Assembly (NCBI RefSeq): GCF_000745855.1
Contig: NZ_KN050766.1
Location: 92,942 to 156,941, forward strand
Direction: 5' to 3'
DNA length: 64,000 bases
From: Xenophilus azovorans DSM 13620
GTDB taxonomy: Bacteria > Pseudomonadota > Gammaproteobacteria > Burkholderiales > Burkholderiaceae_C
A model generated the notes under the pieces. That model made no database searches and was not told the origin of the DNA. It saw only the letters and a list, made by a program, of their open reading frames with translations. Each line of letters begins with the position of its first letter. The stretch's first letter is position 1. Made by a program: the position numbers and the translations under genes. Positions 32,431 to 55,461 of this stretch are shown here, one piece after another.

Positions 32431-32856
32431 GCGCGCCGTGGCCGGGGGCCTGGGGCGCGGGCTCATGGTGGGGCGGTCGGCGCGTTGCGCCGACTTCGCT
32501 GCGGTGCTCGGCCAGGGGGGGCGGTGCCGCAGAACTCGCTGCGTTCACTTCGTTCACTGCGCTCGAACAGCTGCGGCAAGTCAGATGTTGAAGCGTGCCT
32601 GTCCTTCGGCAGGCACGCCCGCCCCTGTCCTGCGCTCCTCGCCGCCCCACAAATCGCCCGCGCCCCAGGCCCCCGGCCACGGCGCGTGGAACCGGGAGGG
32701 AGCATCCAAGGTGCCGTCAACCCGCTACCCCCGTTCGGGCTGAGCCTGTCGAAGCCGGGTGCCGCGCTTCGACAGGCTCAGCGTGAACGGGTGAGGGGAA
32801 TTGAACTGGGCAAGGGGTGTTCTGCAACGGTGCGTTGGGCCGCGGGAGCAGGCCCA
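32431..32856 (+). repeat. Structured dispersed repeat, copy A
   Basis: First of three same-orientation copies. A 255-bp box is closed by perfect 31-nt inverted repeats (32432-32462 and 32656-32686). Inside are a second inner stem (TGGGGCGG near 32467 and CCGCCCCA near 32642), a GTCGGCGC-gtt-GCGCCGAC hairpin, and a 9-bp hairpin at 32593-32618 (GCGTGCCTG / CAGGCACGC). It is followed at 32731-32790 by a 60-nt hairpin with a 17-bp stem (32739-32755 / 32766-32782) plus CCGTTC/GAACGG ends. The element fills the gap between ohrR and the enoyl-CoA hydratase stop. Open frames across it are artefacts. Confidence 0.85.
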
Positions 32857-32878
32857 TCGAGCGCGACCCCAAAGAGAC

Positions 32879-33697
32879 TCAGCGCCCCATGAACCGCGCC
32901 GGCCGCTTCTCGATGAAGGCCCGGATGCCTTCTGCCGCATCTTCACTGGCCGCCAGCCGCTGCTGCACCGGGATGAAGTCGGCCACCGCCGCCGCCTGTC
33001 CCAGCTCGATGGCCTTGAGCACGTTCAGCCGCGTGGCGACCACGGCCTGCGGCGCCTGCGCGGCGATGCGGCGTGCCAGGCCGAGCGCGGTGTCCATCAG
33101 CTCGGCCACCGGCACCACCTTCTGCACGAAGTTGCAGCGGTATGCCTCGGCGGCGTCGAACTCGTCGGCGGTCAGCAGGTGCAGCATGGCGTTGCCCACG
33201 CCGGCACGCTCGGGCATGCGCAGCGTGGCGCCGCCGGCGGGCAGGATGCAGCGCTGCACTTCCATTTGCGAGAAGCGGCAGTCGTCCGCCGCCACCACGA
33301 TGTCGGCGCCCAGCATCAGCTCGATGCCCACGGTGAAGCAGATGCCCTTGACGGCCGCCACCATCGGCTTGGTGCGGCGTCGGTAGCCGGGCAGGCCGAA
33401 GTCGTGCGGCTCCACCAGGCCGGGCGGGGTGAGCTTCTCGCCGCGCTTGAGGTAGTCGGCCACGGCCGGCAGGTCCAGGCCGGCCGTGAAGTGGTCGCCG
33501 TAGGCGTGCAGCACGCCGACGCGAAGCTGCGGGTCGTCGTCCAGCCGGGTGTAGGCCTCGGCCAGCTCGCGGAACATGCGCGGCGTCCAGCCGTTGCGCT
33601 TGGCGGGGCGGTTGATGCCGACGAGCAGGATGTGCTCGTCGACGACTTCGCAGCTGATGCAGCCCTCGGGCGGCGGGGTGACGGGGGTCGGTGTCAT
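32879..33697 (-). CDS. Enoyl-CoA hydratase/isomerase family protein
   Basis: A 272-residue crotonase. Oxyanion-hole regions FTAGLDLPAVADY and ICFTVGIELMLGADIV are present. Both classical Glu positions are retained (GIELML and SQMEVQRCILPAGG), unlike the crotonase at 23.2 kb, so true hydration of enoyl-CoA is plausible. The chosen ATG follows an AAGGAGA site. It precedes nothing in its own direction except the repeat and is downstream of the 3-hydroxybutyryl-CoA dehydrogenase, with which it could act in beta-oxidation. Confidence 0.88.
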   Translation of the reverse strand: MTPTPVTPPPEGCISCEVVDEHILLVGINRPAKRNGWTPRMFRELAEAYTRLDDDPQLRVGVLHAYGDHFTAGLDLPAVADYLKRGEKLTPPGLVEPHDFGLPGYRRRTKPMVAAVKGICFTVGIELMLGADIVVAADDCRFSQMEVQRCILPAGGATLRMPERAGVGNAMLHLLTADEFDAAEAYRCNFVQKVVPVAELMDTALGLARRIAAQAPQAVVATRLNVLKAIELGQAAAVADFIPVQQRLAASEDAAEGIRAFIEKRPARFMGR

Positions 33698-33764
33698 GGG
33701 GTCTCCTTCGGGACGAACCATAGTGCAGCCGGGCCGCCGGCCCCGTCGCCTGGATGACGGCCGG

Positions 33765-34613
33765 TCAGTAGGTGTAGACGCCCCGGCCGGTCTTGCGGCC
33801 GAGCTGGCCGGCGGCCACCATCTCCTTGAGCAGCGGGCAGGCGCGGTACTTGGAGTCGCCGAACTCCTCCAGGTACACCTCCATCACCGCCAGGCACACG
33901 TCCAGCCCGATCATGTCGGCCAGCGCCAGCGGGCCGATGGGGTGGTTGCAGCCGAGCTTCATGCCGGCGTCGATGTCCTCCGGCGTCGCCAGGCCCTCGG
34001 CCAGCACGAAGAAGGCCTCGTTGATCATCGGCACCAGGATGCGGTTGACCACGAAGCCCGGCGCGTTCTTCACCGTGATGGGCTGCTTGCCGAGCTTGAC
34101 GGCCAGCGCCTTCACCGCGTCGTGCGTGGCGTCGCTGGTCAGGTAGCCGCGGATCAGCTCCACCAGCGCCATCATCGGCACCGGGTTGAAGAAGTGCATG
34201 CCGATGAAGCGGTCGGGCCGCTGGGTGTCGGCGGCGAGCTGCGTGATGGAGATGGACGAGGTGTTGGAGGCGATGATCACCTCCGGCGCCAGCAGGCCGT
34301 CCACCTGCTGCAGGATCTTGCGCTTGAGCTCGTGGTTCTCGGTGGCCGCTTCGATGACGAGCTGCGCCGCCTTCAGGTCGTCGTAGTTCGTCGAGCCCCG
34401 GATCAGCGCCAGCGCGTCCTTCTTCTGCGCCTCGGTCAGCTTCTCCTTCTTGATCAGCCGGTCGAGGCTGCCGGAGACGGCGGTCAGGCCCTTGTCCACC
34501 GCGGCCTGGTGGATGTCCACCATCACCACCTTGATGCCCGAGACGGCGCAGGCCTGCGCGATGCCGTTGCCCATGGTGCCGGCGCCGATGATGCCGACGG
34601 TCTGGATGTCCAT
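33765..34613 (-). CDS. 3-hydroxybutyryl-CoA dehydrogenase
   Basis: A 282-residue short 3-hydroxyacyl-CoA dehydrogenase that interconverts 3-hydroxyacyl-CoA and acetoacetyl-type esters with NAD(P). The N-terminal Rossmann motif is VGIIGAGTMGNGIAQ; the catalytic His lies in RFIGMHFFNPVPMM, with Asn in VVNRILVPMINEA and NHPIGPLALADMIGLD. It is the FadB/PaaH/Hbd single-domain type; substrate chain length is not readable. It sits 67 bases upstream of the enoyl-CoA hydratase gene. Confidence 0.94.
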   Translation of the reverse strand: MDIQTVGIIGAGTMGNGIAQACAVSGIKVVMVDIHQAAVDKGLTAVSGSLDRLIKKEKLTEAQKKDALALIRGSTNYDDLKAAQLVIEAATENHELKRKILQQVDGLLAPEVIIASNTSSISITQLAADTQRPDRFIGMHFFNPVPMMALVELIRGYLTSDATHDAVKALAVKLGKQPITVKNAPGFVVNRILVPMINEAFFVLAEGLATPEDIDAGMKLGCNHPIGPLALADMIGLDVCLAVMEVYLEEFGDSKYRACPLLKEMVAAGQLGRKTGRGVYTY

Positions 34614-34689
34614 TGAGTGCTCCTCGAAAGAAAGAAAAAGGGGGATCGATGGCCGATGCTAGCGGCAGCCGATGGCATTGCGCCGGACT

Positions 34690-36342
34690 TCAGCGCCGGG
34701 GGCGGATGCGGTAGATGGCGTTGTCGCGGTCGGCCGAGACGTAGATGCTGCCGTCCGCCCCCACCGCCACGCCGGTGGGCACGTTGGTCGGCGGCAGGCC
34801 GGGGCTGGGCGCCAGGCCGATGGGCAGCCGCTCGGCCACGGTGCGGCGGCTGCCGTCGGCGGGGTCGATCTCCACCAGCCGCTGCGCCGCGGCCTCGGCC
34901 ACGATGAAGCTGCCCCAGGGCGTCTGCGCCAGGCCCTCCGGCATCGCCAGGCCCTGTGCCACCGCCACCGGCTGTCCGCCGGCCAGCGGCACGCGCAGCA
35001 GCCGGCCGGCCGCCTCGGTCACGTAGATCGCGCCGTCGGCGCCCAGCACCATCTGCACCGGGCCCTGGATGCCGCCGGCCAGCACCTTCCGCTCGGCGAA
35101 CTTCTCGCCGCTGGCGCGGGTGAGGGTGCCGGTGGCGATCTCGGCCACGATCACGCTGCCGTCCTCCAGCGGGATCGCGTCGTAGGGCGCCTTCAGCCCG
35201 TGGATGACGGCGGTGGTCTTGCGCGTGGCGCGGTCCACCAGCTGCACTGTGCCGGTGAACCACGAGCTGAGCGCGAAGCGCGTCCTCGACAGGCCCACCG
35301 AGAAGGGGTACTCCAGCTCCGGCTCGCGCTGCATGCGGAAGATGTCGCTCACCGCGCCGCTCTTCAGGTCGACCTCGCGGAAGCCGAAGATGTCGGCCAC
35401 CCACAGCCGGTCGCCCTCGGCCTTCAGTCCGCCGGGCACCGCCACCGCGCCGCCGGTGAGCGTGCGCAGCTCGCCGGTGGCGGGGTTGAAGGCCTGCACC
35501 GCGTTGTCGGCCATGTTGGAGATGTAGATCGTGCCGTCCGGCGCGATCGCCAGGTTGTCCAGCGAGGGCTTGAGCTGCCGGGCCACCGTCTTGCGGCCGG
35601 TGGCCAGCTCCACCCGCACCAGTTCGCCGCTGCGCGCATCGACCACCCACAGGTGGCCCTTGCCGTCCAGGTTGGCGGCGGCGGGGATCTGGAAGCCGTC
35701 GGCGATCACGGTGACGGCGCCGCTGGCCGGGTCGATCTTCACCACCTGGCCCTTGAACCACAGCGGCCCGTAGAGCATGCCGTCGGGCCCGACCTCGAAG
35801 CCGTTGAAGCCGCCCAGGTCCTTCCCGATCAGGCGCGGCGGCGTCCGGCCGCTGCGGTCGATCTCCCACAGCGCGTCGCCCAGGAAGACCTGCGACGCAT
35901 AGAGCCTGCCGCTGCGGCGGTCGAAGTCCAGCGAGTTCAGGCCCGGCAGCTCCTTGGCCAGCACCTGCATCGGCGCGCCGTCGCGCTCCCGGTAGCGCAG
36001 CATGCCCATCAGGTAGTTGGTCCAGGCCAGCTCGCCGCGAGGGCCGACGGCGATGTCGTCGGCCTGGCCCTCGGGCGCGCCGATGAAGACGCGGGCCTCG
36101 CCGGTGCGGCGGTCCACCTCCCAGATCGAGCTGCCCACCACCGAGCCGGCGAGCAGGCGGCCCTGGCGGTCCACCGCCAGGCCGTGCACGCCGGCGAAGG
36201 CGGAGGGCCGGACCAGCGCCTCGGGCGCGGCCCAGCCGGCAGGGCGGGTGGGGGCGGGCGTGGAGCAGCCCGACAGGGCGGCGGCCAGGAAGGCGCCGGC
36301 GAGCATGGCGCCCGCCGCGCCGCGGCGCAGGGTGGAAGGCAT
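34690..36342 (-). CDS. Beta-propeller lipoprotein (SMP-30/NHL-like)
   Basis: A 550-residue exported lipoprotein. The lipobox is LSGCSTPAP near residue 25, predicting lipidation and an envelope location. The rest consists of repeated propeller blades of the NHL/SMP-30/Vgb type, each with a pattern like LAVDRQGRLLAG, GPDGMLYGPLWF, APDGTIYISN, GADGAIYVTEA and GADGSIYVSAD. Members include lactonases and binding scaffolds; no specific catalytic set was identified. The chosen ATG follows GGAGA; upstream in-frame codons would remove the signal peptide. A 259-base divergent gap separates it from the esterase gene, with no clear motif. Confidence 0.78.
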   Translation of the reverse strand: MPSTLRRGAAGAMLAGAFLAAALSGCSTPAPTRPAGWAAPEALVRPSAFAGVHGLAVDRQGRLLAGSVVGSSIWEVDRRTGEARVFIGAPEGQADDIAVGPRGELAWTNYLMGMLRYRERDGAPMQVLAKELPGLNSLDFDRRSGRLYASQVFLGDALWEIDRSGRTPPRLIGKDLGGFNGFEVGPDGMLYGPLWFKGQVVKIDPASGAVTVIADGFQIPAAANLDGKGHLWVVDARSGELVRVELATGRKTVARQLKPSLDNLAIAPDGTIYISNMADNAVQAFNPATGELRTLTGGAVAVPGGLKAEGDRLWVADIFGFREVDLKSGAVSDIFRMQREPELEYPFSVGLSRTRFALSSWFTGTVQLVDRATRKTTAVIHGLKAPYDAIPLEDGSVIVAEIATGTLTRASGEKFAERKVLAGGIQGPVQMVLGADGAIYVTEAAGRLLRVPLAGGQPVAVAQGLAMPEGLAQTPWGSFIVAEAAAQRLVEIDPADGSRRTVAERLPIGLAPSPGLPPTNVPTGVAVGADGSIYVSADRDNAIYRIRPRR

Positions 36343-36601
36343 GGGTGTCTCCTGTGGCGTGGAAGTCCGCCGCGCGTGCCGCCGGCCATGCCTGCGGCAG
36401 CGGGCGGACCGAGTCTTCGGCAGCCGGTGGCGCGGCGCAATCACGCAGGGGACAAGAAGCAAGGGCGCGCCGCGCAGCCAGTTTTCGCAAGCGGCGGCGC
36501 GGCGCGGCTGCGTACCCTCGGCGAGTTCCCTCCCGGCACTGGCCGGCCCGGCGCGGACCGCGCAAGATGGCGCCTTCGCAACCTCGTTCCGAACACAGCC
36601 C

Positions 36602-37567
36602 ATGCTCCATCCCCAAGCCCGAGCCCTGATCGACCTGATGGCCGAACGCGGCGTGCCGCCCACCCACACCCTGGCGCCGCCGGAGGCCCGCGCCCTCTAC
36701 CGCGACCGGCGTGCCTACACCCAGCCCGCCGCGCCCGAGGTGGCCGAGGTGCGCGACCTGCAGGCCGCCGGCCCGCACGGCGACATCCCGTTGCGCAGCT
36801 ACCGGCCCGCCGGCGCCGCGCCTGACGCCGTGCTGCCCGTGCTCGTCTACTACCACGGCGGCGGCTGGGTGATCGGCGACCTGGACACGCACGACACGCT
36901 GTGCCGCGAGCTGGCCAACGGCGCCGGTTGCGCCGTGGTGGCGGTGGACTACCGCCTCGCGCCCGAGCACCGCTTCCCGGCCGCGGTGGACGACGCGCTG
37001 GCCGCCACGCGCTGGGTGGCCCGGCACGCGGCCGAGCTGCGCATCGACCCGGCCCGCCTGGCCGTGGGCGGCGACAGCGCCGGCGGCAACCTCGCCGCGG
37101 TGGTGGCGCTGGCCGCGCGCGACGACACCGACGGCGGCGGCCCGCTGCCGATCGTGTTCCAGCTGCTCATCTACCCCGGCGTGGACATGCGCCGCGGCCA
37201 TGCCTCGCACCAGACCAACGGCCAGGGCTACGTGCTCACGCAGGACACCATCACCTACTTCCACGACCACTACATCGACGACCCCGCGCACGACGCCGAC
37301 TGGCGCGCCTCGCCCCTGCTGGCGGCCGGCCATGCCGGGCTGCCGCCCGCGCTGGTGATCACCGCCGGCTACGACCCGCTGCGCGACGAGGGGCTGGACT
37401 ACGCCCGCGCGCTGTCCGGCGCCGGCAGCCGCGTCGCCCACGTGTGCTTCGAGCGGCAGATCCACGGCTTCATCACCATGGGCCGCGTGCTCGACGAGGC
37501 CAACACGGCGGTCGCGCTGTGCGCGGCCGAGCTGCGCCGCGCCTTCGCCGCGCCGGCCGCGCGCTGA
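36602..37567 (+). CDS. HSL-type alpha/beta hydrolase (carboxylesterase)
   Basis: A 321-residue esterase of the hormone-sensitive lipase family (lipolytic family IV). The oxyanion motif HGGGWVIGD, nucleophile Ser in GGDSAGGNLAA, catalytic Asp in GYDPLRDEG and His in QIHGFITM are all visible. It lacks a signal peptide, so it is cytoplasmic and likely hydrolyses short-chain esters. Divergent from the propeller lipoprotein; followed by the AraC regulator. Confidence 0.93.
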   Translation: MLHPQARALIDLMAERGVPPTHTLAPPEARALYRDRRAYTQPAAPEVAEVRDLQAAGPHGDIPLRSYRPAGAAPDAVLPVLVYYHGGGWVIGDLDTHDTLCRELANGAGCAVVAVDYRLAPEHRFPAAVDDALAATRWVARHAAELRIDPARLAVGGDSAGGNLAAVVALAARDDTDGGGPLPIVFQLLIYPGVDMRRGHASHQTNGQGYVLTQDTITYFHDHYIDDPAHDADWRASPLLAAGHAGLPPALVITAGYDPLRDEGLDYARALSGAGSRVAHVCFERQIHGFITMGRVLDEANTAVALCAAELRRAFAAPAAR

Positions 37568-37704
37568 ACTAGGGAAAGCCCCGTCCAGATGGGTGCCAAC
37601 GCCCGCCGTGCCGTCGGTACGATGCGCCCAACCCGGGAGAGCCGGCGCGCAGTGGCGCGGCGGGGTGTGCGATGCGTCCAACGACTTCGAGGAGACCGAG
37701 CAGC

Positions 37705-38517
37705 ATGCAGACGACGAGGGTGGTGCACGCCGACGGTGGGGAGCGCCTCATGTGGCTGACGACGCAGCGCGTCTTCTATGCCGGCCTGCTGGGCCTGGCG
37801 AGCGAGCGCAGCTTCGGCGGCTGGGGCGTGTACGTGTCGCCGCGCGGCCTGCCCAACCGCATCCGCATCGGCGGCGGGGCCTGGCAGTCGGGCGAGCTGC
37901 TGGTCGTGCCGCCGCAGGTGCCGCACCACGTCCAGAGCGCCGAGCCGCTGGTCCTGAACCTGCTCGTCGAGTCGGAATCGGTCGATCCCGATGCGCTGCC
38001 CGCCGTGCTGCGCCGCTGCGGCCCGGTGGACGACCCCGCCTTCGTGCGCCGCGTGCGCGCGGCCCATGCGCAGCTCGTGGCCGCCTCCGGCCGCGAGTGC
38101 TTCGGCGGCATCGACTTCGACCGCCTCTTCTTCGGCCAGCCGCTGCCCGAGCGGCCGCTGGACGCGCGCATCCGGCAGGTGATCGAGCGCGTGAGCGCCG
38201 CGCCCGCGGCGCCGTGGTCGGCCGAGCAGTGCGCCGCCGACGTGCACCTGTCCTTCTCGCGCTTCCTGCACCTGTTCAAGGCGCAGACGGGCATGACCTT
38301 CCGCGCCTTCCGCGCCTGGAAGCGCGCCCGCAGCCTGCTGCGCTACGTGCGGGAGTCGGCCAGCCTGACCGACATCGCGCTGGACGCCGGCTACCCCGAC
38401 TCCACCCACTTCAGCCATTCGATCCGCCAGATCTACGGGCTGCGGCCCAGCGAGATCGTGGCCGGCTCGCGGCGCCTGGCGCTGCACGACGCCGCGGGCG
38501 AGGTGCTATGCGGCTGA
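37705..38517 (+). CDS. AraC-family transcriptional regulator
   Basis: A 270-residue regulator with an N-terminal cupin-like sensing domain (QSGELLVVPPQVPHHVQSAEPL) and a C-terminal double helix-turn-helix AraC domain (about 170-260; SFSRFLHLFKAQTGMTFRAF and LTDIALDAGYPDSTHFSHSI). The ATG after GGAG is used; an ATG 33 bases upstream has no ribosome site. It is transcribed toward the liv operon, 64 bases ahead of livH, and could control it or the esterase gene. Confidence 0.9.
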   Translation: MQTTRVVHADGGERLMWLTTQRVFYAGLLGLASERSFGGWGVYVSPRGLPNRIRIGGGAWQSGELLVVPPQVPHHVQSAEPLVLNLLVESESVDPDALPAVLRRCGPVDDPAFVRRVRAAHAQLVAASGRECFGGIDFDRLFFGQPLPERPLDARIRQVIERVSAAPAAPWSAEQCAADVHLSFSRFLHLFKAQTGMTFRAFRAWKRARSLLRYVRESASLTDIALDAGYPDSTHFSHSIRQIYGLRPSEIVAGSRRLALHDAAGEVLCG

Positions 38518-38581
38518 CAGCGCCTCACCGCACCCCGGCCGCGGGCCGCCGCCTTCCCGGGCGCTGAGGGGGCGGCGCGCG

Positions 38582-39457
38582 GTGCAAGTCCTCCAGCTCC
38601 TGCTCTCCGGCATCGCCCAGGGCTGCATCTACGGCCTGATCGCGCTGGGCTTCGTGCTCATCTACAAGGCCACCGAGACGGTGAGCTTCGCCCAGGGCGA
38701 CCTGATGATGCTGGGGGCCTTCGCCGCCTTCGCGGGCATGTCGCTGTTCGGCCTGCCGTTCTGGGCGGCGGCGCTGCTGGCGCTGGCGGCGATGGTCGCC
38801 TTCGGCATGCTGGTGGAGCTGGCCGTCATCCGGCCCATCCTGGGCCAGCCGCAGTTCTCCATCGTCATGCTGACCATCGGCATCGGCTACGTGCTGCGCG
38901 GCCTGATCACCATGGTGCCCGGCATCGGCACCGAGACGCACACGCTGGCCGTGCCCTACAAGGACCAGGTCTGGAAGCTCGGCGGCCTGGTGGTCAACGT
39001 GGAGCAGGCGGTGGTGGTCGGCGCCACCGCCGTGCTGTGCGCGCTGCTGTTCGCCATGTTCCGCTACAGCAAGCTGGGCATTGCCATGCAGGCCAGCTCG
39101 CAGAACCAGCTGGCGGCCTACTACATGGGCATCCCGGTCAAGCGGCTGAACTCGCTGGTGTGGGGCCTGGCGGCGGCGGTGGCCACGGTGGCCGGCATGC
39201 TGCTGGCGCCCATCACCTTCGTGCACGCCAACATGGGCTTCATCGGGCTGAAGGCCTTCCCCGCGGCGGTGGTGGGCGGCTTCGGCAGCCTGCCGGGCGC
39301 CATCGTCGGCGGGCTGATCATCGGCGTGGTGGAGTCGCTGGCCGGCTTCTACCTGCCCGACGGCTTCAAGGACACGGCGCCCTACATCGTGGTGCTGGCG
39401 ATGCTGATGCTCAAGCCGAACGGCCTGTTCGGCGAGAAGCTCAGGAAGAAGGTGTAG
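38582..39457 (+). CDS. livH: LivH-type branched-chain/aromatic acid ABC permease
   Basis: A 291-residue inner-membrane permease of the LivH family with about eight helices. N-terminal IAQGCIYGLIALGFVLIYKA and the C-terminal EAA-like region AFPAAVVGGFGSLPGAIVGG are typical. Start is GTG after a GAGGGGG site. With LivM it forms the channel of a hydrophobic amino acid or aromatic/aliphatic acid importer; the adjacent acyl-CoA ligase argues for an acid other than an amino acid. Confidence 0.93.
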   Translation: MQVLQLLLSGIAQGCIYGLIALGFVLIYKATETVSFAQGDLMMLGAFAAFAGMSLFGLPFWAAALLALAAMVAFGMLVELAVIRPILGQPQFSIVMLTIGIGYVLRGLITMVPGIGTETHTLAVPYKDQVWKLGGLVVNVEQAVVVGATAVLCALLFAMFRYSKLGIAMQASSQNQLAAYYMGIPVKRLNSLVWGLAAAVATVAGMLLAPITFVHANMGFIGLKAFPAAVVGGFGSLPGAIVGGLIIGVVESLAGFYLPDGFKDTAPYIVVLAMLMLKPNGLFGEKLRKKV

Positions 39458-39467
39458 CAGGGCCGTC

Positions 39468-40626: not shown

Positions 40627-41442
40627 ATGAGCGGCGACATCCTCCTCTCGGCCCACGACCTGAGCGTGCGCTTCGGCGGCGTGCTGGCGGTCAACAAGGT
40701 GGGCTTCGAGGTGCGGCGCGGCGAGGTGTTCACCCTCATCGGCCCCAACGGCGCCGGCAAGACGACGGTGTTCAACCTCATCAGCCGCATCTACCAGCCC
40801 ACCACCGGCAGCATCACCTGGCACGGCGAAGGCGGCGCGCCGGTGGTGCTGACCGAACAGCCGCCGCACGCCATCGCGGCGCTGGGCATCGCGCGCACCT
40901 TCCAGAACATCGAGCTGTTCGAGCACGCCACGGTGCTGCACAACCTGCTGATCGGCCGCCACACGCACCGCCGCACCGGCTTCTGGCGCGAGGTCTTCTT
41001 CACCCCCGCCACGCGCCGCGCCGAGATCGAGGCGCGCGAGAAGGCCGAGCAGGTGATCGACCTGCTGGACCTGCAGCACCACCGCGACGCGCTGGCGGCC
41101 GGCCTGCCGTATGGCGTGCGCAAGGTGGTGGAGCTGGCGCGCGCGCTGTGTACCGAGCCGAAGCTGCTGCTGCTGGACGAACCCTCGTCGGGCCTGAACG
41201 TGGAGGAGACGGCCGACATGGCCTTCTGGATCCAGGACATCCAGCAGGAGCTGGGCATCTCGGTGCTGATGGTGGAGCACGACATGACGCTGGTGTCCAA
41301 GGTGTCCGACCGCGTGCTGGCGATGAACCAGGGCGAAGTGCTGGCGCTGGGCACGGCGCGCGAGGTGCAGGCGGACCCGCGCGTGGTGGAAGCCTATCTC
41401 GGTACGGTGGAAGACGTGAGCAGCCTCAGGAGGACGGCATGA
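40627..41442 (+). CDS. livG: LivG-type ABC ATP-binding protein
   Basis: A 271-residue ATPase. Walker A GPNGAGKTTVFN, a signature region degenerate at PYGVRKVVELARAL, Walker B LLLLDEPSSGLN and switch His in LMVEHDM are visible. The ABC signature (normally LSGGQ-like) reads PYGVRK, common in LivG-type proteins. The ATG directly follows a hairpin with no AGGAG site. Its stop overlaps livF (ATGA). Confidence 0.93.
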   Translation: MSGDILLSAHDLSVRFGGVLAVNKVGFEVRRGEVFTLIGPNGAGKTTVFNLISRIYQPTTGSITWHGEGGAPVVLTEQPPHAIAALGIARTFQNIELFEHATVLHNLLIGRHTHRRTGFWREVFFTPATRRAEIEAREKAEQVIDLLDLQHHRDALAAGLPYGVRKVVELARALCTEPKLLLLDEPSSGLNVEETADMAFWIQDIQQELGISVLMVEHDMTLVSKVSDRVLAMNQGEVLALGTAREVQADPRVVEAYLGTVEDVSSLRRTA

Positions 41443-45272: not shown

Positions 45273-45294
45273 GCTGCCGGATGCGTCGATGACG

Positions 45295-45323
45295 AGGCCG
45301 CTCCTTTCCGGACGGCCTTTTTT
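45295..45323 (+). terminator. Intrinsic terminator of the liv operon
   Basis: AGGCCG (45295-45300) pairs with CGGCCT (45313-45318), followed by a run of six T (45318-45323), 23 bases after the livK stop. The loop is 12 bases. It is the only clear stem plus T-run in the window. Confidence 0.7.
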
Positions 45324-45335
45324 GTGGTCCGTGGC

Positions 45336-45763
45336 GCGCGCCGTGGCCGGGGGCCTGGGGCGCGGGCTCATGGTGGGGCGGTCGGCGCGTTGCGCCGACT
45401 GCGCTGCGGTGCTCGGCCGCGGGGCGGTGCCGCAGAACTCGCTACGCGCTCCTTCGGAGCGCTGCGCTCAAACAGCTGCGGCAAGTCAGATGTTGAAGCG
45501 TGCCTGTCCTTCGGCAGGCACGCCCGCCCCACGGCCTGCGCTCCTCGCCGCCCCACAAATCGCCCTCGCCCCAGGCCCCCGGCCACGGCGCGTGGAACCG
45601 TTGGTAGAGCATCCAACGGGGAGGCTGATACCCCAACCACCGTTCGGGCTGAGCCTGTCGAAGCCGGGTGACGCGCTTCGACAGGCTCAGCGTGAACGGG
45701 TGAGGGGAGTTGAACGGGCAGAGGTGTTCTGCAACGGTCCGTTGGGTCGCGGGAGCAGGCCCA
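45336..45763 (+). repeat. Structured dispersed repeat, copy B
   Basis: Second copy, same orientation as copy A. Outer inverted repeats are at 45337-45367 and 45562-45592 (one mismatch). The 9-bp hairpin is at 45498-45523, and the trailing 60-nt hairpin at 45640-45699. It begins 13 bases after the liv terminator and shares the last ~35 bases (to GCAGGCCCA) with copy A. In place of copy A's GTTCAC direct repeat it has a GCGCTCC-ttc-GGAGCGC hairpin. Confidence 0.85.
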
Positions 45764-46008
45764 GGCCCCGGTGAGGGGGCGGTGGCGCGCCTGTGGAGCG
45801 CCGAGAAGCGCAGGGCGGCCGGGCTGCATGCCTGCCGCAGGACAGGCATGCTTCGTGATCTGACTCGGCGCAGATGTTTGAGCGCAGTGAACGAAGTGAA
45901 CGTAGCGAGTTCTGCGCCGGCCCGGCCGCGCGAGCATCGCAGGGGAGTCGGCGCAACGCGCCGACCGCTCCACCGAAGCGCCACCGTCCCCTCACCGGGG
46001 CCTGGGCC
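45758..46008 (-). repeat. Diverged inverted relative of the repeat (copy B2)
   Basis: A 251-bp box facing copy B. The outer arms (45758-45788 and 45978-46008, 31 nt, one mismatch) differ completely from the arms of copies A-C but are complementary to each other. The core, read on the minus strand, keeps the GTCGGCGC-gtt-GCGCCGAC hairpin, the GCAGAACTCGCT segment and the AGTCAGAT segment. The 9-bp hairpin (45826-45851) has a paired change, GCATGCCTG / CAGGCATGC against GCGTGCCTG / CAGGCACGC. It lacks the trailing 60-nt hairpin. Confidence 0.75.
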
Positions 46009-46046
46009 GGCACTGAGCCCGAGCCCAAGAGCCCAAAAGCCCGGCT

Positions 46047-47201: not shown

Positions 47202-47217
47202 GGGGCGAATTGTCCGT

Positions 47218-49033: not shown

Positions 49034-49087
49034 TGAAAGTTTTTCAGTGCCGCCCGCGCGGCGCCCAGGCTGCTTCAGTTTTTCATG
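49034..49087. promoter_or_regulatory. Repeated AGTTTTTCA sites upstream of lctP
   Basis: TGAAA-gtt-TTTCA (49034-49046) is a perfect dyad. The stretch AGTTTTTCA occurs within it and again about 40 bases later (ending near 49086). They lie about 155-210 bases upstream of lctP in an AT-rich patch. Possible binding sites of the neighbouring LysR protein or upstream promoter elements; nothing else is recognised in 48880-49030 or 49088-49200. Confidence 0.35.
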
Positions 49088-49200
49088 GAGCGGCGCGCGC
49101 TGTCCGCATCGCATGGAACACGACAGCCTTCCCTGATCCGAAGGCCGCGGAGCAGGCCATGCCAGGGCACCCGAGGAACTGGCTTGGCCAGGCCTCCGGG

Positions 49201-49261
49201 TGCGCCCCCCTCCCGCCGAAGGCGAGAGAGGGGGGAGCGGCGAAGCCGCTTGGGGGGTGTG
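49201..49261. repeat. GC palindrome array before the LysR stop
   Basis: A 61-base stretch with nested hairpins: CGCC-gaa-GGCG, GCGGC-gaa-GCCGC and an outer CCCCCCTC / GAGAGGGGGG pairing. It abuts the LysR stop codon and lies between that gene and the lctP promoter. It resembles REP-like intergenic elements of Comamonadaceae (from memory) and could stop or slow transcription from the LysR gene. Confidence 0.5.
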
Positions 49262-50161
49262 TCATTTCAACGCACCGCGTAGCCAGTCGACGAAGGCGGC
49301 GCATTCCCAGCGTTCCAGCGTGCCCGGCTTCCAGCACAGGAAGTAGTCGTGCGGCGAGCGCACGCTGCGCGGCGACAGGCGCACCAGGCGGCCGCTGTCC
49401 AGCCAGCTCTGCCCGAGCCGCATGCGCATCAGCGCCACGCCGAAGCCGGCCACCGCGGCGTCGTGCACCAGCCCCAGGTCGTTGAACTGGTTGCCCGAGG
49501 CCGGCTCCGGCAGGCCGATGCCGCAGGCGCGGAACCAGGTGCGCCAGGGCTCCAGCGGCGAGCGGATCAGGTGCGCGCGGCCGATCGACGCCTCCGTCTC
49601 GAAGCCGTCGTCGAAGGGACCGGCCTCGCGCAGGTACTCCGGGCTGCACACCGGGCAGACCTCGTCCGAGAGCAGGTGCATCGACTCGCGGTCGGGGAAG
49701 GGACCGGTGCCGAAGCGCAGCTCGATGTCGGCCTCCTCGGCCGTCACGTTGTGGATCGGGATGGCCACCTGCAGCATCAGCTCGATGTCCGGGTAGGCGT
49801 GGCGGAACATCGCCAGCCGCGGCAGCAGCAACTGGCGCGAGAAGGTGGGCGTGACCGCCACGCGCAGCCGCGCCGGCGCGTCGGCGCCGGGCTGGCCGGC
49901 CAGCGGCTGGTCCTGCAGCGCCGCCATCGCCTCGCGCACGCGCGCCAGGTAGGCGGCGCCCTCGGCCGTGGGCAGGAACTCGCCGCGCGCGGCGAAGAGC
50001 TTCAGGCCGAGCTGCGACTCGAGCTGGCGGATGCGGTGGCTCACCGCGCTGGGCGTGACGCTCAGCTCGGCCGCCGCCTGCGTCACGCTGCGCAGGCGCG
50101 CGACGGCCTCGAAGGCCAGCAGGGCCTGGATGGGCGGGATGCGGGCGGCGTTGGGGGCCAT
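49262..50161 (-). CDS. LysR-family regulator upstream of lactate genes
   Basis: A 299-residue GcvA-like LysR regulator. The helix-turn-helix is at about 12-60 (ALLAFEAVARLRSVTQAAAELSVTPSAVSHRIRQLESQLGLKLF by position; recognition helix TPSAVSHRIRQLE), and the effector domain starts near residue 95. It lies directly upstream of lctP-lldD on the same strand and is the likely regulator of lactate use. Confidence 0.9.
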   Translation of the reverse strand: MAPNAARIPPIQALLAFEAVARLRSVTQAAAELSVTPSAVSHRIRQLESQLGLKLFAARGEFLPTAEGAAYLARVREAMAALQDQPLAGQPGADAPARLRVAVTPTFSRQLLLPRLAMFRHAYPDIELMLQVAIPIHNVTAEEADIELRFGTGPFPDRESMHLLSDEVCPVCSPEYLREAGPFDDGFETEASIGRAHLIRSPLEPWRTWFRACGIGLPEPASGNQFNDLGLVHDAAVAGFGVALMRMRLGQSWLDSGRLVRLSPRSVRSPHDYFLCWKPGTLERWECAAFVDWLRGALK

Positions 50162-50189
50162 GCCGTCATTGTGCGCGGGCCGGGCGCCC

Positions 50190-51461
50190 TCACCCGCCCA
50201 GCGCGCGGGTGGCGGCGTGGATGAGCAGGCCGACCAGCCCGCCCACCAGCGTGCCGTTGATGCGGATGAACTGCAGGTCGCGGCCGATGGCGCGCTCCAC
50301 CTCGCCGGTCAGTTCGGCGCTGTCCCACTGCGCGACGCGCTCCTCGATGTAGCGGCGGATGCGCTCGCGCCAGCGGTCGATGGCGCGGGGCGCGCCGTCG
50401 AGGAGCTGTTCGTCGATCCAGCGGCGCATCGCCTCGTCGGCCTGCAGCCGCTCGCCGAGCGTGCCGGCCAGCTGGGTGACGCGGCGGCGCAGGCTGGAGT
50501 CCTCGCGCGCCAGGTCGGCGTCGAGCCAGGCGCGCAGGCGGTCCCACAGGCCCTGCAGGTAGTCGGCCAGGGCGGGGTGGGCCAGCAGCTCGGCGCGGAT
50601 TTGCTCGCCGCGGGCGATGAAGGCCGGGTCGGCCTGCAGCCGCGCCGCCGCGCGGTCCATGAAGCCGTCGAAGCGCCGGCGCAGCGGATGGCCGGGCGTG
50701 GCCGCCGTCTCGCCCAGCGTGCGCGCGACGGCGGCGACGATCTTGCGCGTGGCCAGGCGGGCCGCCACCTGGTCCAGCCCGACGTAGCGCAGCGCCTTGA
50801 TCTCGCGGGCGATGGCGTCGGTGAGCTGCTCCTGCAACTGCTCGTCGTCCAGCAGCGCGGCCGTGCGGCCCAGCAGGTCGTCCAGCAGCGCCTGGTGGCG
50901 GCCGTCGGCGGTCAGCGCCTCCAGCACCCGGCCGGCCAGCCGCGAGAAGTCCAGCTGCGCCAGGCCTGCGCCCGCCGCCCGCGCCAGGAAGGCGCGCACC
51001 CGCTCGTCGTCGAAGGCGGTGAGGCCGTAGCGCAGCAGCACGGCCGCCAGGGCGCCCAGCTGCCCGGCCTGTGCCGGGCGGGCCAGCCAGCGCGCCAGGC
51101 GCAGGGCCGGGTCGGCGGCGCGCAGCTTGGCCAGCACCTGCGGCGTGGCGAGGAAGTGGTCGCAGATGAAATTCGCCAGGTTGCGCCCGATGCGCGCCTT
51201 GTTCTCCGGGATGATGGCCGTGTGCGGGATCGGCAGCCCGAGCGGGCGGCGGAACAGCGCCGTCACCGCGAACCAGTCGGCAATGGCGCCGACCATCGCC
51301 GCCTCGGCGAAGGCCGCCACGTAGCCCATGGCCGGGTGCAGGGCGCCCCAGCGCGTGGCCGCGGCATAGAGCAGGGCGGCGCCGGCCAGCAGCGCCAGCG
51401 CCAGGCGCTTCATGCCGGCGGCCGGATGGCGCGCGGCGCGGGTCGCCTCGGCCTCAGCCAA
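50190..51461 (-). CDS. DUF445 family membrane protein
   Basis: A 423-residue protein with an N-terminal hydrophobic segment (LALALLAGAALLYAA), a second membrane-like segment with GAIADWFAVTALFRRPLGLPIPHTAIIPENKARIG, the hallmark of DUF445, then long helices and a final hydrophobic segment (FIRINGTLVGGLVGLLIHA). The family is widespread and of unknown function. The start is uncertain: TTG at 51461 overlaps the ArgE-like gene by 8 bases; an ATG at 51413 lacks a ribosome site. Confidence 0.8.
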   Translation of the reverse strand: MAEAEATRAARHPAAGMKRLALALLAGAALLYAAATRWGALHPAMGYVAAFAEAAMVGAIADWFAVTALFRRPLGLPIPHTAIIPENKARIGRNLANFICDHFLATPQVLAKLRAADPALRLARWLARPAQAGQLGALAAVLLRYGLTAFDDERVRAFLARAAGAGLAQLDFSRLAGRVLEALTADGRHQALLDDLLGRTAALLDDEQLQEQLTDAIAREIKALRYVGLDQVAARLATRKIVAAVARTLGETAATPGHPLRRRFDGFMDRAAARLQADPAFIARGEQIRAELLAHPALADYLQGLWDRLRAWLDADLAREDSSLRRRVTQLAGTLGERLQADEAMRRWIDEQLLDGAPRAIDRWRERIRRYIEERVAQWDSAELTGEVERAIGRDLQFIRINGTLVGGLVGLLIHAATRALGG

Positions 51462-52659
51462 TGTCCTTCGTGTCCGCCAGGCCCTGCATGAAAACCTCGC
51501 AGCGGGCGAGCTGTTCCAGCGTCACGTACTCGTCGGGCTGATGCGCCTGCGCGATGCTGCCCGGGCCGCACACCACCGTGGGAATGCCGGCGCCCTTGAA
51601 CAGGCCCGCCTCGGTGCCGAAGGCCACCAGCGTGGTGCGCGGCTCGCCGGCGAGGCGCTGGGCCAGGCGCGTCACCGCGTCCTTCTCGTCGCCCTGGAAG
51701 GCCGGGATCTCGCAGATGGTCTCGAAGCGGAAGCCCGCCTCGGGCGCGACCTTCTTCATCGCCGGCTCCAGCGAGCGGGCGTAGGCCTCGACCTCGCGCT
51801 GCATGGCCAGCGCGTCCACCATCGGCAGGTTGCGGAACTCGTAGCGGAACTCCGCGTCGCGCGGCACCACGTTGTCGGCGATGCCGCCGTGGAACTGGCC
51901 CACGCTGGCGGTGGAATAGGGCACGTCGAAGCCGGTGTAGCGCCGCTCGGCCCGCTCGTACAGCTCGGCCATGTCGCGCAGCTTGCCGACCACGCGGGCG
52001 GCCATCTCGACGGCGTTGACCGACTGCGGCGTGAGCGAGGAGTGCGCCTCCTTGCCGCGCACGCAGCAGCGCCAGCGGTACACGCCCTTGTGCGCGATGG
52101 CCGGCACCATCAGCGTCGGCTCGCCGACGATGCAGGCCAGCGGGCGGATGTCGGCCTCCTTCAGGTCGGCGATCAGCTCGCGCACGCCGAAGCAGCCGAT
52201 CTCCTCCTCGTAGCTGAGGGCCAGGTGCACCGAGAAGGGCGCGTCGCTCTCGACGAAGCGCTCGGCGTTGGCCAGCGCCACCGCGATGAAGCCCTTCATG
52301 TCGGCCGCGCCGCGGCCGTACAGGCGCGCGCTGCCGCGGAAGTCGTCGCCCTCGGTGATCGGCCAGTCCTGCACGATGGCCGAGAGCGGGTCCACGCTCC
52401 AGTCCTGGCCGTCCCAGGAAACGGTGTCGGTGTGGCCCGAGAGGATGACGCCGGCCGGCTTGCCCGCGCCCAGCGTGGCGAACAGGTTGGCCTTGGTCCG
52501 GTCGGCGTTCCAGGTCAGGCGGCTGCGGATGCCCAGCCCGGCCAGGTGGTCGCGCGCGAAGTCGATCAGCTCCAGGTTGCTGTTCGCGCTGACGGTGTTC
52601 ATCTGCACCAGCGTCTGGGCGAACTCCAGGGCGCGGGCGGAAAGGGCGGTCTCGGGCAT
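51454..52659 (-). CDS. argE: ArgE-like acetylornithine deacetylase (M20 family)
   Basis: A 401-residue M20 metallo-deacylase of the ArgE/DapE group. The metal-binding HTDTVSWDGQDW, YGRGAADMKGF, the catalytic Glu pair in LSYEEEIGCFG and the final His region GPGSIAQAHQPDEYV are visible. It would release ornithine from N-acetylornithine or deacylate a related amino acid. Start at the ATG giving the usual N terminus; upstream codons extend into the intergenic region. Divergent from another M20 gene across 109 bases. Confidence 0.88.
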   Translation of the reverse strand: MPETALSARALEFAQTLVQMNTVSANSNLELIDFARDHLAGLGIRSRLTWNADRTKANLFATLGAGKPAGVILSGHTDTVSWDGQDWSVDPLSAIVQDWPITEGDDFRGSARLYGRGAADMKGFIAVALANAERFVESDAPFSVHLALSYEEEIGCFGVRELIADLKEADIRPLACIVGEPTLMVPAIAHKGVYRWRCCVRGKEAHSSLTPQSVNAVEMAARVVGKLRDMAELYERAERRYTGFDVPYSTASVGQFHGGIADNVVPRDAEFRYEFRNLPMVDALAMQREVEAYARSLEPAMKKVAPEAGFRFETICEIPAFQGDEKDAVTRLAQRLAGEPRTTLVAFGTEAGLFKGAGIPTVVCGPGSIAQAHQPDEYVTLEQLARCEVFMQGLADTKDIG

Positions 52660-52768
52660 GGGGGGATTGTGAGGCAGCCGGCCGCCGCCCGCCCGCGGCG
52701 CAGGGCGCGCCCCGGGCCCCGGGTTTGCGGCGGTGGCGGCTTCGGCCCAAAAGCCTAGACTGCGGCGC

Positions 52769-53968
52769 ATGAAGCTCATCGATTCCATCGTCACGCAGGC
52801 CGCCGGCATCGCCGCCATCCGGCGCGACCTGCACGCGCATCCCGAACTGGCCTACGAGGAAGTCCGCACCGCAGACGTGGTTGCGGCGCGGCTGACGGAA
52901 TGGGGCATTCCCATCCACCGCGGCCTGGGCACCACCGGCGTGGTCGGCATCGTGAAGAACGGCACCAGCCCGCGCGCCGTGGGCCTGCGCGCCGACATGG
53001 ACGCGCTGCCCATCCACGAGCTCAACACCTTCACGCATGCCAGCAAGCACGAGGGCAAGATGCACGCCTGCGGCCACGACGGCCACACCGCCATGCTGCT
53101 GGCGGCGGCGCAGCACCTGGCGAAGCACCGCCACTTCGACGGTACCGTCTACCTGATCTTCCAGCCGGCCGAGGAGGGCGGCGGCGGCGCTGACCGGATG
53201 ATCAAGGACGGGCTGTTCGAGAAGTTCCCGATGGAGGCCGTGTTCGGCATGCACAACTGGCCGGGCATGCAGGCCGGGCAGTTCGCCGTCAGCCCCGGGC
53301 CGGTGATGGCCTCGGGCAACAAGTTCTACATCACCGTGCGCGGCAAGGGCGGTCACGCGGCGCTGCCGCACACCACCATCGACCCGGTGCCCATCGCCTG
53401 CGAGATGGTGCAGGCCTTCCAGACCATCCTGACGCGCAAGATGAAGCCGCTGGACGCGGCCGTCATCTCCGTGACCACGGTGCATGCCGGCGACACCAAC
53501 AACGTGATCCCCAACGACTGCGAGATCACCGGCACCGTGCGCACCTTCTCCATCGAGGTGCTGGACATGATCGAGGCGCGCATGCGCAAGATCTCCGAGC
53601 ACATCTGCGCCGCGCACGACGCCGAGTGCGATTTCGAGTTCGTGCGCTACTACCCGCCCACCGTCAACACCGAGGCCGAGGCGAACTTCGCCCGCGGCGT
53701 GATGGCGAGCGTGGTCGGCGCCGACAACGTGCTGAAGCAGGAGCCGGCGATGACCTCCGAGGACTTCGCCTTCATGCTGCAGGCCAGGCCCGGCGCCTAC
53801 GCCTTCATCGGCAACGGCGACGGCAGCCACCGCCCGGCGCTGCACGGCGAGGGGCCCTGTACGCTGCACAACGCCAGCTACGACTTCAACGACGACCTGA
53901 TCCCGCTGGGCGCCACGGTCTGGGTGCAGCTGGCCGAGCAGTGGCTGGCCCGGGAGCGTGCCGCATGA
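52769..53968 (+). CDS. M20 aminoacylase/hippurate hydrolase family protein
   Basis: A 399-residue M20D amidohydrolase of the HipO/AbgB/IAA-amino-acid hydrolase type. RRDLHAHPELAYEE at the N terminus, the metal site ACGHDGHTAML, the catalytic QPAEEGGGGAD, MHNWPG and the C-terminal MTSEDFAFML are all present. It cleaves N-acylated amino acids such as hippurate. Translationally coupled (ATGA) to the DUF2817 gene. Confidence 0.93.
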   Translation: MKLIDSIVTQAAGIAAIRRDLHAHPELAYEEVRTADVVAARLTEWGIPIHRGLGTTGVVGIVKNGTSPRAVGLRADMDALPIHELNTFTHASKHEGKMHACGHDGHTAMLLAAAQHLAKHRHFDGTVYLIFQPAEEGGGGADRMIKDGLFEKFPMEAVFGMHNWPGMQAGQFAVSPGPVMASGNKFYITVRGKGGHAALPHTTIDPVPIACEMVQAFQTILTRKMKPLDAAVISVTTVHAGDTNNVIPNDCEITGTVRTFSIEVLDMIEARMRKISEHICAAHDAECDFEFVRYYPPTVNTEAEANFARGVMASVVGADNVLKQEPAMTSEDFAFMLQARPGAYAFIGNGDGSHRPALHGEGPCTLHNASYDFNDDLIPLGATVWVQLAEQWLARERAA

Positions 53969-55074
53969 TCGGCGTGGCGGAGGCTTTCCCGGCGAGCTAT
54001 GCCGAGGGGCGCGCCAAGTTCCTGGCCGCCTGCGTGGCGGCGGGGCTGCCGGTGCAGACGCATCCGCTCGCGCTGCCCGGCGCCGGGGGCGAGGCGCTGG
54101 CGATGGACGTGGCGCGCGAAGGCCCGGCCGATGCCGAGCGCCTGCTCGTCGTCACCAGCGCCTGCCACGGCGTGGAGGGCCACTGCGGCAGCGGCGTGCA
54201 GGTCTTCGCGCTGCACGACGACGAGTGGCGCGACAAGGCGCGCGCCGCCGGCGTGGCGGTGCTGTACGTGCATGCGCTCAATCCGCACGGCTTCTCGTAC
54301 GGGCGGCGGACGACGCAGGAGAACGTGGACCTGAACCGCAACTTCGCGGACTTCGGCGCTCCGCTGCCCGCCAACCCCGCGTATGCCGAGCTGCACGCGC
54401 TGCTGCTGCCGCGCGAGTGGCCGCCCACGCCGGCCAACGAGGCGGCGCTGGGCCAGTGGATGCAGCAGCACGGCATGCCCGCCTTCCAGGCCGCCATGTC
54501 GAGTGGGCAGTACCAGTTCGAGGACGGCGTGTTCTTCGGCGGCAAGGCACCCACCTGGAGCAACCGCACGCTGCGCCAGGTGCTGCGCCAGCACGGCGCG
54601 GCGGCGCGGCGCATCGCCTGGATCGACCTGCACACCGGCCTGGGCCCGAACGGGCTGGGCGAGCGCATCTTCGCCTGCCGCGACGACGCGGCCGCCTACC
54701 GGCGCGCCAGCGCCTGGTGGAGCGGCGGCGGCGCCACGCCCGTCACCTCGATCTACGACGGCAGCTCCACCTCCTCGCTGCTCAACGGCCTGATGTGGAA
54801 CGCGGTCTACGAGGAATGCCCGCAGGCCGAGTACACCGGCATCGCGATGGAGTACGGCACGCTGCCGCTGCTGGAGGTGATGCAGGCCACGCGTGCCGAC
54901 CACTGGCTGCACAACCATCCCGACGCCGCCCCCGAGTTGGCCGCGGCCATCCGCCGGCAGATGCGCGAGGCCTTCTACACCGACACCGACGCCTGGAAGG
55001 GGCAGGTCATCAGCCAGGCGCGGCAGGCGATGTTCCAGGCGGTGGATGGGTTGAGTGGGGTGGCTGACTCCTGA
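53965..55074 (+). CDS. DUF2817 / M14-like metallopeptidase
   Basis: A 369-residue protein of the DUF2817 family, related to M14 zinc carboxypeptidases. Zinc-site candidates are visible: SACHGVEGHCGSG (HxxE), NVDLNRNFADFG and WIDLHTGLGPNG, with a late Glu in GIAMEYGTLPLLE. It may trim an amide or peptide bond, possibly handling the product or substrate of the co-translated M20 enzyme. Repeat copy C begins 15 bases after its stop. Confidence 0.85.
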   Translation: MIGVAEAFPASYAEGRAKFLAACVAAGLPVQTHPLALPGAGGEALAMDVAREGPADAERLLVVTSACHGVEGHCGSGVQVFALHDDEWRDKARAAGVAVLYVHALNPHGFSYGRRTTQENVDLNRNFADFGAPLPANPAYAELHALLLPREWPPTPANEAALGQWMQQHGMPAFQAAMSSGQYQFEDGVFFGGKAPTWSNRTLRQVLRQHGAAARRIAWIDLHTGLGPNGLGERIFACRDDAAAYRRASAWWSGGGATPVTSIYDGSSTSSLLNGLMWNAVYEECPQAEYTGIAMEYGTLPLLEVMQATRADHWLHNHPDAAPELAAAIRRQMREAFYTDTDAWKGQVISQARQAMFQAVDGLSGVADS

Positions 55075-55089
55075 CGTGACTTAGGGGGA

Positions 55090-55461
55090 GCGCGCCGTGG
55101 CCGGGGCCTGGGGCGCGGGCTCATGGTGGGGCGGTCGGCGCGTTGCGCCGACTTCGCTGCGGTGCTCGGCCAGGGGCGGCGCTGCATAACTCACTGCGCG
55201 CTCCTGCGGAGCGCTCCGTTCAAACAGGTGCAGCGAGTCAGAGTTGAAGCGTGCCTGTCCTACCGCAGGCCCGCCCGCCCCTGTCCTGCGCTCCTCGCCG
55301 CCCCACAAATCGCCCGCGCCCCAGGCCCCCGGCCACGGCGCGTGGAACCGGGAGGGAGCATCCAAGGTGCCGTCAACCCACCACCCCCGTTCGGGCTGAG
55401 CCTGTCGAAGCCGGGTGATGCGCTTCGACAGGCTCAGCGTGAACGGGTGAGGGGAGTTGAC
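55090..55461 (+). repeat. Structured dispersed repeat, copy C
   Basis: Third copy, same orientation. Outer arms are at 55090-55120 and 55312-55342 (one-base bulge). The inner 9-bp hairpin has one unpaired change (CAGGCCCGC). The 60-nt hairpin is at 55387-55446. The stretch between the box and the hairpin is nearly identical to copy A and different from copy B, so A and C are closer relatives. The copy ends about 60 bases before the kinase/phosphatase stop and lacks the final segment shared by A and B. Confidence 0.85.

What the first reader, a model, noticed from the sequence alone, without database searches (positions are those of the whole stretch)
32431..55461. Three same-orientation copies of a two-part structured intergenic repeat
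Copies at 32431-32856, 45336-45763 and 55090-55461 share the same architecture. Each has a ~252-256-bp box closed by ~31-nt inverted repeats with nested inner hairpins, then a spacer, then an exactly 60-nt hairpin with a 17-bp stem. All three stand between genes, just past the end of an operon or gene on at least one side. No transposase is seen and no clean target duplication could be found. They may be MITE-like mobile DNA, 3'-end RNA elements or a structured RNA family.
Basis: seen in the sequence. Interest (0 to 1): 0.72.

Follow-up and report, generated by a model that had tools for sequence, protein, structure and literature searches.

The report
Twin folded repeats behind genes
The three repeats are copies, two of them damaged, of a widespread and apparently undescribed non-coding element made of two facing, elaborately folded halves that sits behind genes in many related bacteria; evolution has kept the fold of one particular strand, which points to a real but still unproven job.

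Summary
The unit is not "box + 60-nt hairpin". It is two homologous ~235-257-nt boxes facing each other (A> spacer <B). Copies 1 and 3 kept only A. The 60-nt hairpin is a separate dispersed repeat lying in some spacers.

Matches occur in 15/15 genomes of the genus (probably Xenophilus or near it). Covariance models find boxes in 237/399 sampled genomes of the family and 49/369 of the class; no Rfam family reaches its gathering score. Adjacent boxes almost always face each other (30/30, 13/13, 11/13, 11/11). In 67 boxes 55 of 69 pairs show double changes and 95% of cells pair (72% shuffled). The fold is kept on one strand: A.C mismatches outnumber G.T 48:9 in close pairs and 36:7 between same-locus pairs; unpaired sites show no such bias. 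Boxes sit behind genes and very rarely between divergent ones; empty sites and copying between loci show past mobility.

Best reading: a once-mobile twin-box element retained for a strand-specific fold, probably acting in RNA at transcript ends whichever way transcription arrives. That function is inferred, not shown.

The parts
32431..32686 (+). Copy 1, box A (256 nt)
32731..32790 (.). Separate dispersed 60-nt palindrome lying in the copy 1 spacer; not part of the element
32791..32856 (+). Copy 1, rest of the spacer, matching copy 2 up to where B begins there; B and right end missing
45325..45331 (+). Copy 2, possible left end TGGTCCG
   Evidence: read; recurrence weak
45336..45592 (+). Copy 2, box A (257 nt)
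45593..45764 (.). Copy 2, spacer (172 nt) between the facing boxes
45640..45699 (.). Separate 60-nt palindrome in the copy 2 spacer
45765..46001 (-).
46002..46010 (+). Copy 2, altered right end (CTGGGCCGG followed by CAC, not ACCA)
55090..55342 (+). Copy 3, box A (253 nt); B missing
55388..55446 (.). Separate palindrome (59 nt) in the copy 3 spacer
55473..55480 (+). Copy 3, right-end sequence CCGGACCA reached directly from the spacer
41439..41442 (+). Empty site: two ABC-transporter genes overlap by 4 nt here; G001, G005, G007 and G009 have a solo box (type C) between their orthologues

Best explanation
A dispersed, non-coding, once-mobile twin-box element. Each box is a multi-branched fold: a closing stem, a small hairpin, an inner stem with a conserved AACTC...AAACA loop and, in long forms, a third stem-loop. 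The boxes face each other, so the strand whose fold is conserved always runs outward from the spacer. SHOWN: facing architecture, covariation, strand asymmetry, high conservation at fixed loci, position behind genes, empty sites, copying between loci. INFERRED: it persists because the fold acts in RNA at transcript ends. Whichever way RNA polymerase arrives, the last box it copies is in the folding orientation and ends, insulates or protects that transcript. In class-wide relatives a T-rich tract follows the box on exactly that strand, as in intrinsic terminators. Spread was probably by an enzyme acting in trans, which was not identified.
For: Facing boxes: 30 of 30 multi-box rows in the genus, 13 of 13, 11 of 13 and 11 of 11 neighbouring pairs in family, order and class loci. 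Covariation: 55 of 69 pairs with double changes, 95.0% of cells paired against 71.9% shuffled and 32-43% slid; 26 of 30 and 93.7% against 66.1% class-wide. Strand: A.C against G.T 68:6, 39:10, 14:9 and 24:9, flipped on the complement; 48:9 in 30 disjoint close pairs; 36:7 in 21 same-locus pairs. Conservation: B 0.92-0.99 in 20 of 20 same-locus comparisons, above fourfold sites of the neighbouring genes each time. Position: 0 of 42 rows divergent in the genus; 17 convergent, 28 tandem, 1 divergent of 46 elsewhere. T-rich outward flank in class forms. Empty sites.
Against: No T-rich tract outward in the window's genus (0 of 67 boxes) and little in the family set (6 of 38); in the class set A-rich stretches are nearly as common (40 against 44 of 53) because a further hairpin follows. 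Copy 2 already has a terminator-like hairpin with six T upstream of A. About half of the genus pairs (15 of 30 rows) lie between tandem genes, some apparently inside operons, where a strong terminator would be costly. Solo boxes between tandem genes show no preference for the orientation the model predicts (5 in it, 9 against it). The number of further pair types is not above shuffles. No transcription data. Exchange between copies could account for part of the conservation.
Confidence: 0.45

Rival explanations
1. A non-autonomous transposon (MITE-like) whose two ends are the boxes. A transposase supplied in trans recognises the folded strand that has its 3' end at each outer end; by symmetry that is the outward strand found here. 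Host function is nil or secondary.
For: Empty sites at copy 1 in 8 sister genomes; elements at different loci 98% identical over about 850 nt; A boxes swapped at two loci; right end CCGGACCA in 14 of 29 elements.
Against: The left counterpart TGGTCCGG is exact in only 1 of 29 elements, with GTCCG near the junction in 8; no target duplication could be read and no autonomous copy was found in the loci fetched; same-locus pairs still show structure-keeping changes after insertion.
Confidence: 0.25
2. A giant REPIN-like element moved by the genus's RAYT-type (Y1_Tnp) transposase.
For: Inverted twins like REP doublets; exactly one PF01797 match in 14 of 15 genus genomes; REPs likewise lie between convergent and unidirectional genes (PMC3733652, passages read).
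Against: No box or 60-nt hairpin beside the 13 of 14 Y1_Tnp loci examined, only fragments of 24 and 44 nt; G002 has box matches but no PF01797 match; boxes are several times the 20-40 nt of REPs.
Confidence: 0.08
3. No function: long quasi-palindromes kept paired by template switching and exchange between copies.
For: Boxes are exchanged; whole boxes appear cleanly lost in several copies; long palindromes are known to mutate this way (general knowledge).
Against: Intermediates between close copies are mostly A.C, not G.T, although unpaired sites show no such bias; arm-to-arm copying should not favour one strand's wobble pairs. Loop residues are also conserved.
Confidence: 0.12

Closest known systems
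REP / BIME / REPIN repeats
   Same: Dispersed intergenic palindromes, inverted pairs, preference for convergent and unidirectional gaps, argued to act in RNA (PMC3733652, passages read).
   Different: Boxes of ~235-257 nt with branched folds rather than 20-40 nt; no RAYT linkage found; the REPIN-like item here is the separate 60-nt hairpin.
Structured MITEs (ERIC, NEMIS, RUP, Nezha; recalled, named also in PMC3733652 passages)
   Same: Non-coding, dispersed, foldable, empty sites.
   Different: Two separately folding halves of ~240 nt each; terminal inverted repeats weak; no target duplication read; no source transposase.
Bidirectional intrinsic terminators between convergent genes
   Same: Position, and in class-wide forms a T-rich tract after the fold on the outward strand.
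   Different: Much larger, duplicated and dispersed as a repeat; T-tract missing in the window's genus; also between tandem genes.

Membership tests
Any Rfam 15 family | Match at the curated gathering score | tested here: not met
   0 in the window and in 15 related loci. At relaxed threshold, three weak matches overlap only the 60-nt hairpin region.
REP / REPIN | Short (20-40 nt) palindromic unit | tested here: not met
   Boxes are about 224-257 nt.
REP / REPIN | Repeats flank a RAYT gene | tested here: not met
   13 of 14 Y1_Tnp loci of the genus examined, no box or hairpin beside them.
REP / REPIN | GTAG or CGTC tag at the unit's end | not tested
   -
MITE | Dispersed, non-coding, present/absent at orthologous sites | tested here: met
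   Copy 1 empty sites in 8 sister genomes; copy 2 site empty in 3.
MITE | Terminal inverted repeats | tested here: inconclusive
   Right end CCGGACCA in 14 of 29 elements; exact left counterpart in 1, GTCCG near the junction in 8.
MITE | Target-site duplication | tested here: inconclusive
   Flanks too diverged to read one.
MITE | Autonomous relative with a transposase | not tested
   No systematic search; none noticed in fetched loci.
Structured RNA acting at transcript ends | Compensatory changes and strand preference for wobble pairs | tested here: met
   (single-stranded DNA would give the same signal).
Structured RNA acting at transcript ends | Transcribed, with a 3'-end, processing or stability effect | not testable with these tools
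   No expression data held.
Intrinsic terminator | GC-rich hairpin followed by a T-tract on the transcript strand | tested here: inconclusive
   Outward nt 11-30 are 47-48% T and 8-9% A in class forms, but 0 of 67 genus boxes have a T-rich 8-mer outward.

The most novel reading that the evidence does not exclude
A class-wide, undescribed family of direction-insensitive transcript-end modules: two facing RNA folds, so that transcription from either side meets one box in working orientation. It spread as mobile DNA and was then held in place by selection on the outward strand.
Probability: 0.3. Interest if true: 0.85.

Novelty: new variant of a known kind. Interest (0 to 1): 0.62.

Why it matters
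Interspersed structured repeats usually look like debris. Here one family reaches across many families of a class, keeps a two-box facing layout, and shows selection on the fold of a single strand at fixed sites. If it acts at transcript ends it is a large unrecognised regulatory layer; if it is a transposon end it implies an enzyme that reads folded DNA. Either can be tested with ordinary transcript mapping. Four own-genome boxes are cut at scaffold gaps, runs of N or contig ends, so short-read genomes will under-count it.

Tried and rejected
Box + hairpin as one element: rejected, because the hairpin is separate and absent in two species with box matches. An island integrated into a box: L010 and L004 carry complementary parts of A 124 kb apart, but both stop at runs of N, so they are assembly breaks. 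RAYT linkage: not found. Phage or plasmid carriage: one 27-letter core pattern gave 0 stretches in viral contigs; no phage match with two queries; plasmid-collection matches were partial or only to the hairpin, the clearest on a 2.5-Mb Variovorax replicon. Template-switch origin of the covariation: disfavoured by the strand bias. Strand choice by folding energy alone: weak; the complement is better by 7.9 kcal/mol on average, but by 5.4 in simple shuffles of a third of the boxes, and the DNA-parameter result (67 of 70) had no shuffle control. A first gene caller picked wrong frames and was replaced. A pseudoknot AACTC-GAGTC was considered and its columns located, but it was not tested. Paper searches for hairpin and outer-arm letters found nothing relevant; topical searches listed no paper that, from titles, abstract starts and the passages read, describes this family. 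Most listed papers were not opened.

Limits: at family, order and class rank the genome searches scored only 7 (R1) or 9 (R2) candidates per genome, so presence and copy counts are lower bounds; E-value limits differed (1e-4 family, 1e-5 order and class) and model E-values are rough. A3, A4 and A6 are fitted to their models; A4 holds duplicate loci and shares loci with A6. Box sets exclude boxes with N or cut by a locus end; A1 uses 67 of 70. One search kept only facing pairs and is not used for orientation counts. One search used coordinates and dropped four duplicate loci. One search used part of those loci and could not score 15 of 61 groups (11 at an edge, 4 with no gene within 700 nt). 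Gene calls are my own script's. G005 and G006 look like near-duplicates. No systematic IS search and no search for other transposase families was made.

Full report
WHAT IS THERE. The three reported boxes exist at the stated places, with long closing arms and a fold far beyond shuffled sequence (z -11.3). A search of the own genome with copy 1 gave 83 matches, both strands of palindromes counted; 55 fall in the region of the 60-nt hairpin alone. A smaller set are boxes, one of them inverted just after copy 2. Alignment of the four window boxes shows that this one, 45765-46001 on the minus strand, is a homologue (B) with different closing arms and much the same inner parts (z -8.3).

THE UNIT IS A FACING PAIR. 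All 15 genomes searched in the genus have matches. When boxes are grouped by distance without regard to strand, every multi-box group in the genus set is A> <B: 30 of 30 rows, one of which repeats window copy 2. The same holds in loci of other genera of the family (13 of 13 neighbouring pairs under 600 nt), in loci found at order rank (11 of 13) and at class rank (11 of 11). In the family set 10 of 13 pairs have 117-130 nt between cores; longer spacers in the window's genus hold extra sequence, in some cases the 60-nt palindrome. That palindrome occurs in 18 of 40 relatives but not in G002 or G014, which have box matches. It is therefore an independent repeat.

ENDS, LOSS AND MOVEMENT. In the junction table of 29 elements the right end CCGGACCA recurs in 14; its left counterpart TGGTCCGG is exact in only 1, with GTCCG near the junction in 8, so terminal inverted repeats are suggested, not shown. 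Copy 3 passes from the spacer to CCGGACCA with B missing; copy 1 stops where B would start. B also appears lost in L004, L007 and L056, and A at one locus in G007. At the copy 1 site eight sister genomes have a 93-109-nt gap between the same two genes where the window has 527 nt; in the other six the two genes are not neighbours. At the copy 2 site ten of 14 sister genomes show a box after the orthologous gene: seven both boxes, G007 B only, G008 and G013 part of A near a contig end; G010's contig ends at what reads as the start of A; G002, G004 and G014 have none. Two elements in different species at different loci are 98% identical over about 850 nt, while one of them is 89% identical to the element at its own locus in the other species. 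At two loci the A box has been swapped while B has not (A 0.80-0.81 against B 0.92-0.98). So units and single boxes are copied or exchanged between places.

THE FOLD IS UNDER SELECTION, ON ONE STRAND. In 67 genus boxes 55 of 69 predicted pairs have changes on both sides; 95.0% of cells pair, against 71.9% in shuffles and 32-43% in slid versions; the number of further pair types is not above shuffles. Over 55 class-wide boxes the figures are 26 of 30 pairs and 93.7% against 66.1%, on a model-fitted alignment, again without an excess of pair types. Shuffles ignore relatedness, so closer comparisons were made. When boxes are folded with wobble pairs forbidden, single mismatches inside stems are mostly A.C and less often G.T in the A orientation (68:6, 39:10, 14:9 and 24:9 for the genus, family, order and class sets), and the ratio flips when the complement is folded. 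In 30 disjoint close pairs one-sided changes give A.C 48 times, G.T 9 times and other mismatches 15 times, while unpaired sites show A/G 31 and C/T 34 (Fisher P 2.6e-5). Restricted to 21 pairs at the same locus in different species the counts are 36 and 7 (against unpaired sites P 8e-4). A.C here is G.T on the other strand, so the strand whose fold is kept is the complement of A, which in a facing pair always runs outward. RNA and single-stranded DNA would give the same signal. The same-locus result means the constraint acts after insertion, unless exchange between copies refreshes them. In 20 same-locus comparisons B boxes are 0.92-0.99 identical and A boxes 0.95-0.98 in 14 and 0.80-0.81 in the six that involve a swapped A; fourfold sites of neighbouring genes are 0.74-0.94 and spacers 0.24-0.98.

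WHERE IT SITS. None of 42 scored rows in the genus lies between divergent genes (39 without the rows that repeat window copies; many rows are orthologous, 20 neighbourhoods in all, two of them at contig edges), while the window's own gene pairs are 39 tandem, 9 convergent and 9 divergent. Elsewhere 46 of 61 groups could be scored: 17 convergent, 28 tandem, 1 divergent, against 3, 43 and 8 among 54 other gene pairs in the same loci. A named example lies between convergent genes in a Variovorax paradoxus replicon. Tandem sites include gaps between genes that read as hpaD and hpaF, as liv-type ABC genes, and as an acyl-CoA dehydrogenase and a semialdehyde dehydrogenase (recognised by eye from the sequences, not by a family search).

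HOW FAR IT REACHES. Model R1 finds boxes in 237 of 399 genomes and 92 of 141 genera of the family and in 61 of 399 genomes of the order, 50 of them in 15 other families, where many cores are shorter and lack the third stem-loop. Model R2, built from 13 short cores, finds 49 of 369 genomes and 42 of 272 genera of the class. Many class forms have outer arms reading, outward, CGCCTTTTCTTTGG and then a TACTTTCTTTT...AAAAGAAAGTA hairpin. Named contigs with one exact core pattern, 60 stretches, include Xenophilus, Variovorax, Acidovorax, Pseudacidovorax, Methylibium and Rhizobacter, the last four from metagenome assemblies. No Rfam family reaches its gathering score in the window or in 15 related loci.

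HOW IT MIGHT WORK. The facing layout, the outward conserved strand, the position behind genes and, in class forms, the T-rich tract after the box on that strand (nt 11-30 outward 47-48% T, 8-9% A) fit a module that handles transcript ends from either side. Against it: the tract is missing in this genus (0 of 67 boxes), copy 2 has a separate terminator-like hairpin upstream, tandem sites are common, and solo boxes between tandem genes are not oriented as the model would predict (5 for, 9 against). A transposon-end role for the fold fits the mobility data and, by symmetry, the same strand. I put the transcript-end reading at 0.45 and the transposon-end reading at 0.25.

KNOWN KINDS. It resembles REP/BIME pairs and structured MITEs. 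The REP survey PMC3733652 (passages read) reports the same preference for convergent and unidirectional gaps and argues from stem G-T pairs that repeats act in RNA. PMC2267715 and PMC2817692 were also read only in passages. REP membership fails on unit size and on RAYT linkage as far as tested; MITE membership is met for empty sites and open for ends, target duplication and source. No paper in the held library was found to describe it (searches); subscription journals are mostly not held.

Noticed in passing
window 32731-32790, 45640-45699, 55388-55446: The 60-nt palindrome is two inverted ~25-nt units 10 nt apart, REPIN-like, with 32-50 matches in each of 13 of the 15 genus genomes (both strands counted) and none in G002 and G014; a 32-nt piece also matches a Sphingobium plasmid.
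   Followed up: partly
L153 (own genome C20:73415-73684) and L303-L314: A single RAYT-like Y1_Tnp gene in 14 of 15 genus genomes; G002 lacks a match and also lacks the 60-nt palindrome, but G014 has the gene and lacks the palindrome.
   Followed up: partly
window 1 (contig position C1:92942) and C1:217557: The window begins right after a run of N that interrupts an A box; another A box is interrupted by N near C1:217557. Boxes seem to break short-read assembly.
   Followed up: partly
L253-L258, either side of the short cores: Outer arms with nested hairpins (TACTTTCTTTTGGCGAAGCAAAAGAAAGTA type), and near-exact 13-nt direct repeats like CTGCGCTGCTCGG on both sides of the inner stem of each short box. 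Possible protein-binding sites.
   Followed up: no
L161:533-1661: Two facing boxes about 800 nt apart with what looks by eye like an open reading frame between them; a possible cargo-bearing form.
   Followed up: no
L129 (G008), after position 2837: Box A breaks off into unrelated sequence shortly before the contig end; possibly an insertion into the box.
   Followed up: no
window 45302-45323: A terminator-like hairpin followed by six T lies between the substrate-binding-protein stop codon and copy 2 (read by eye).
   Followed up: no
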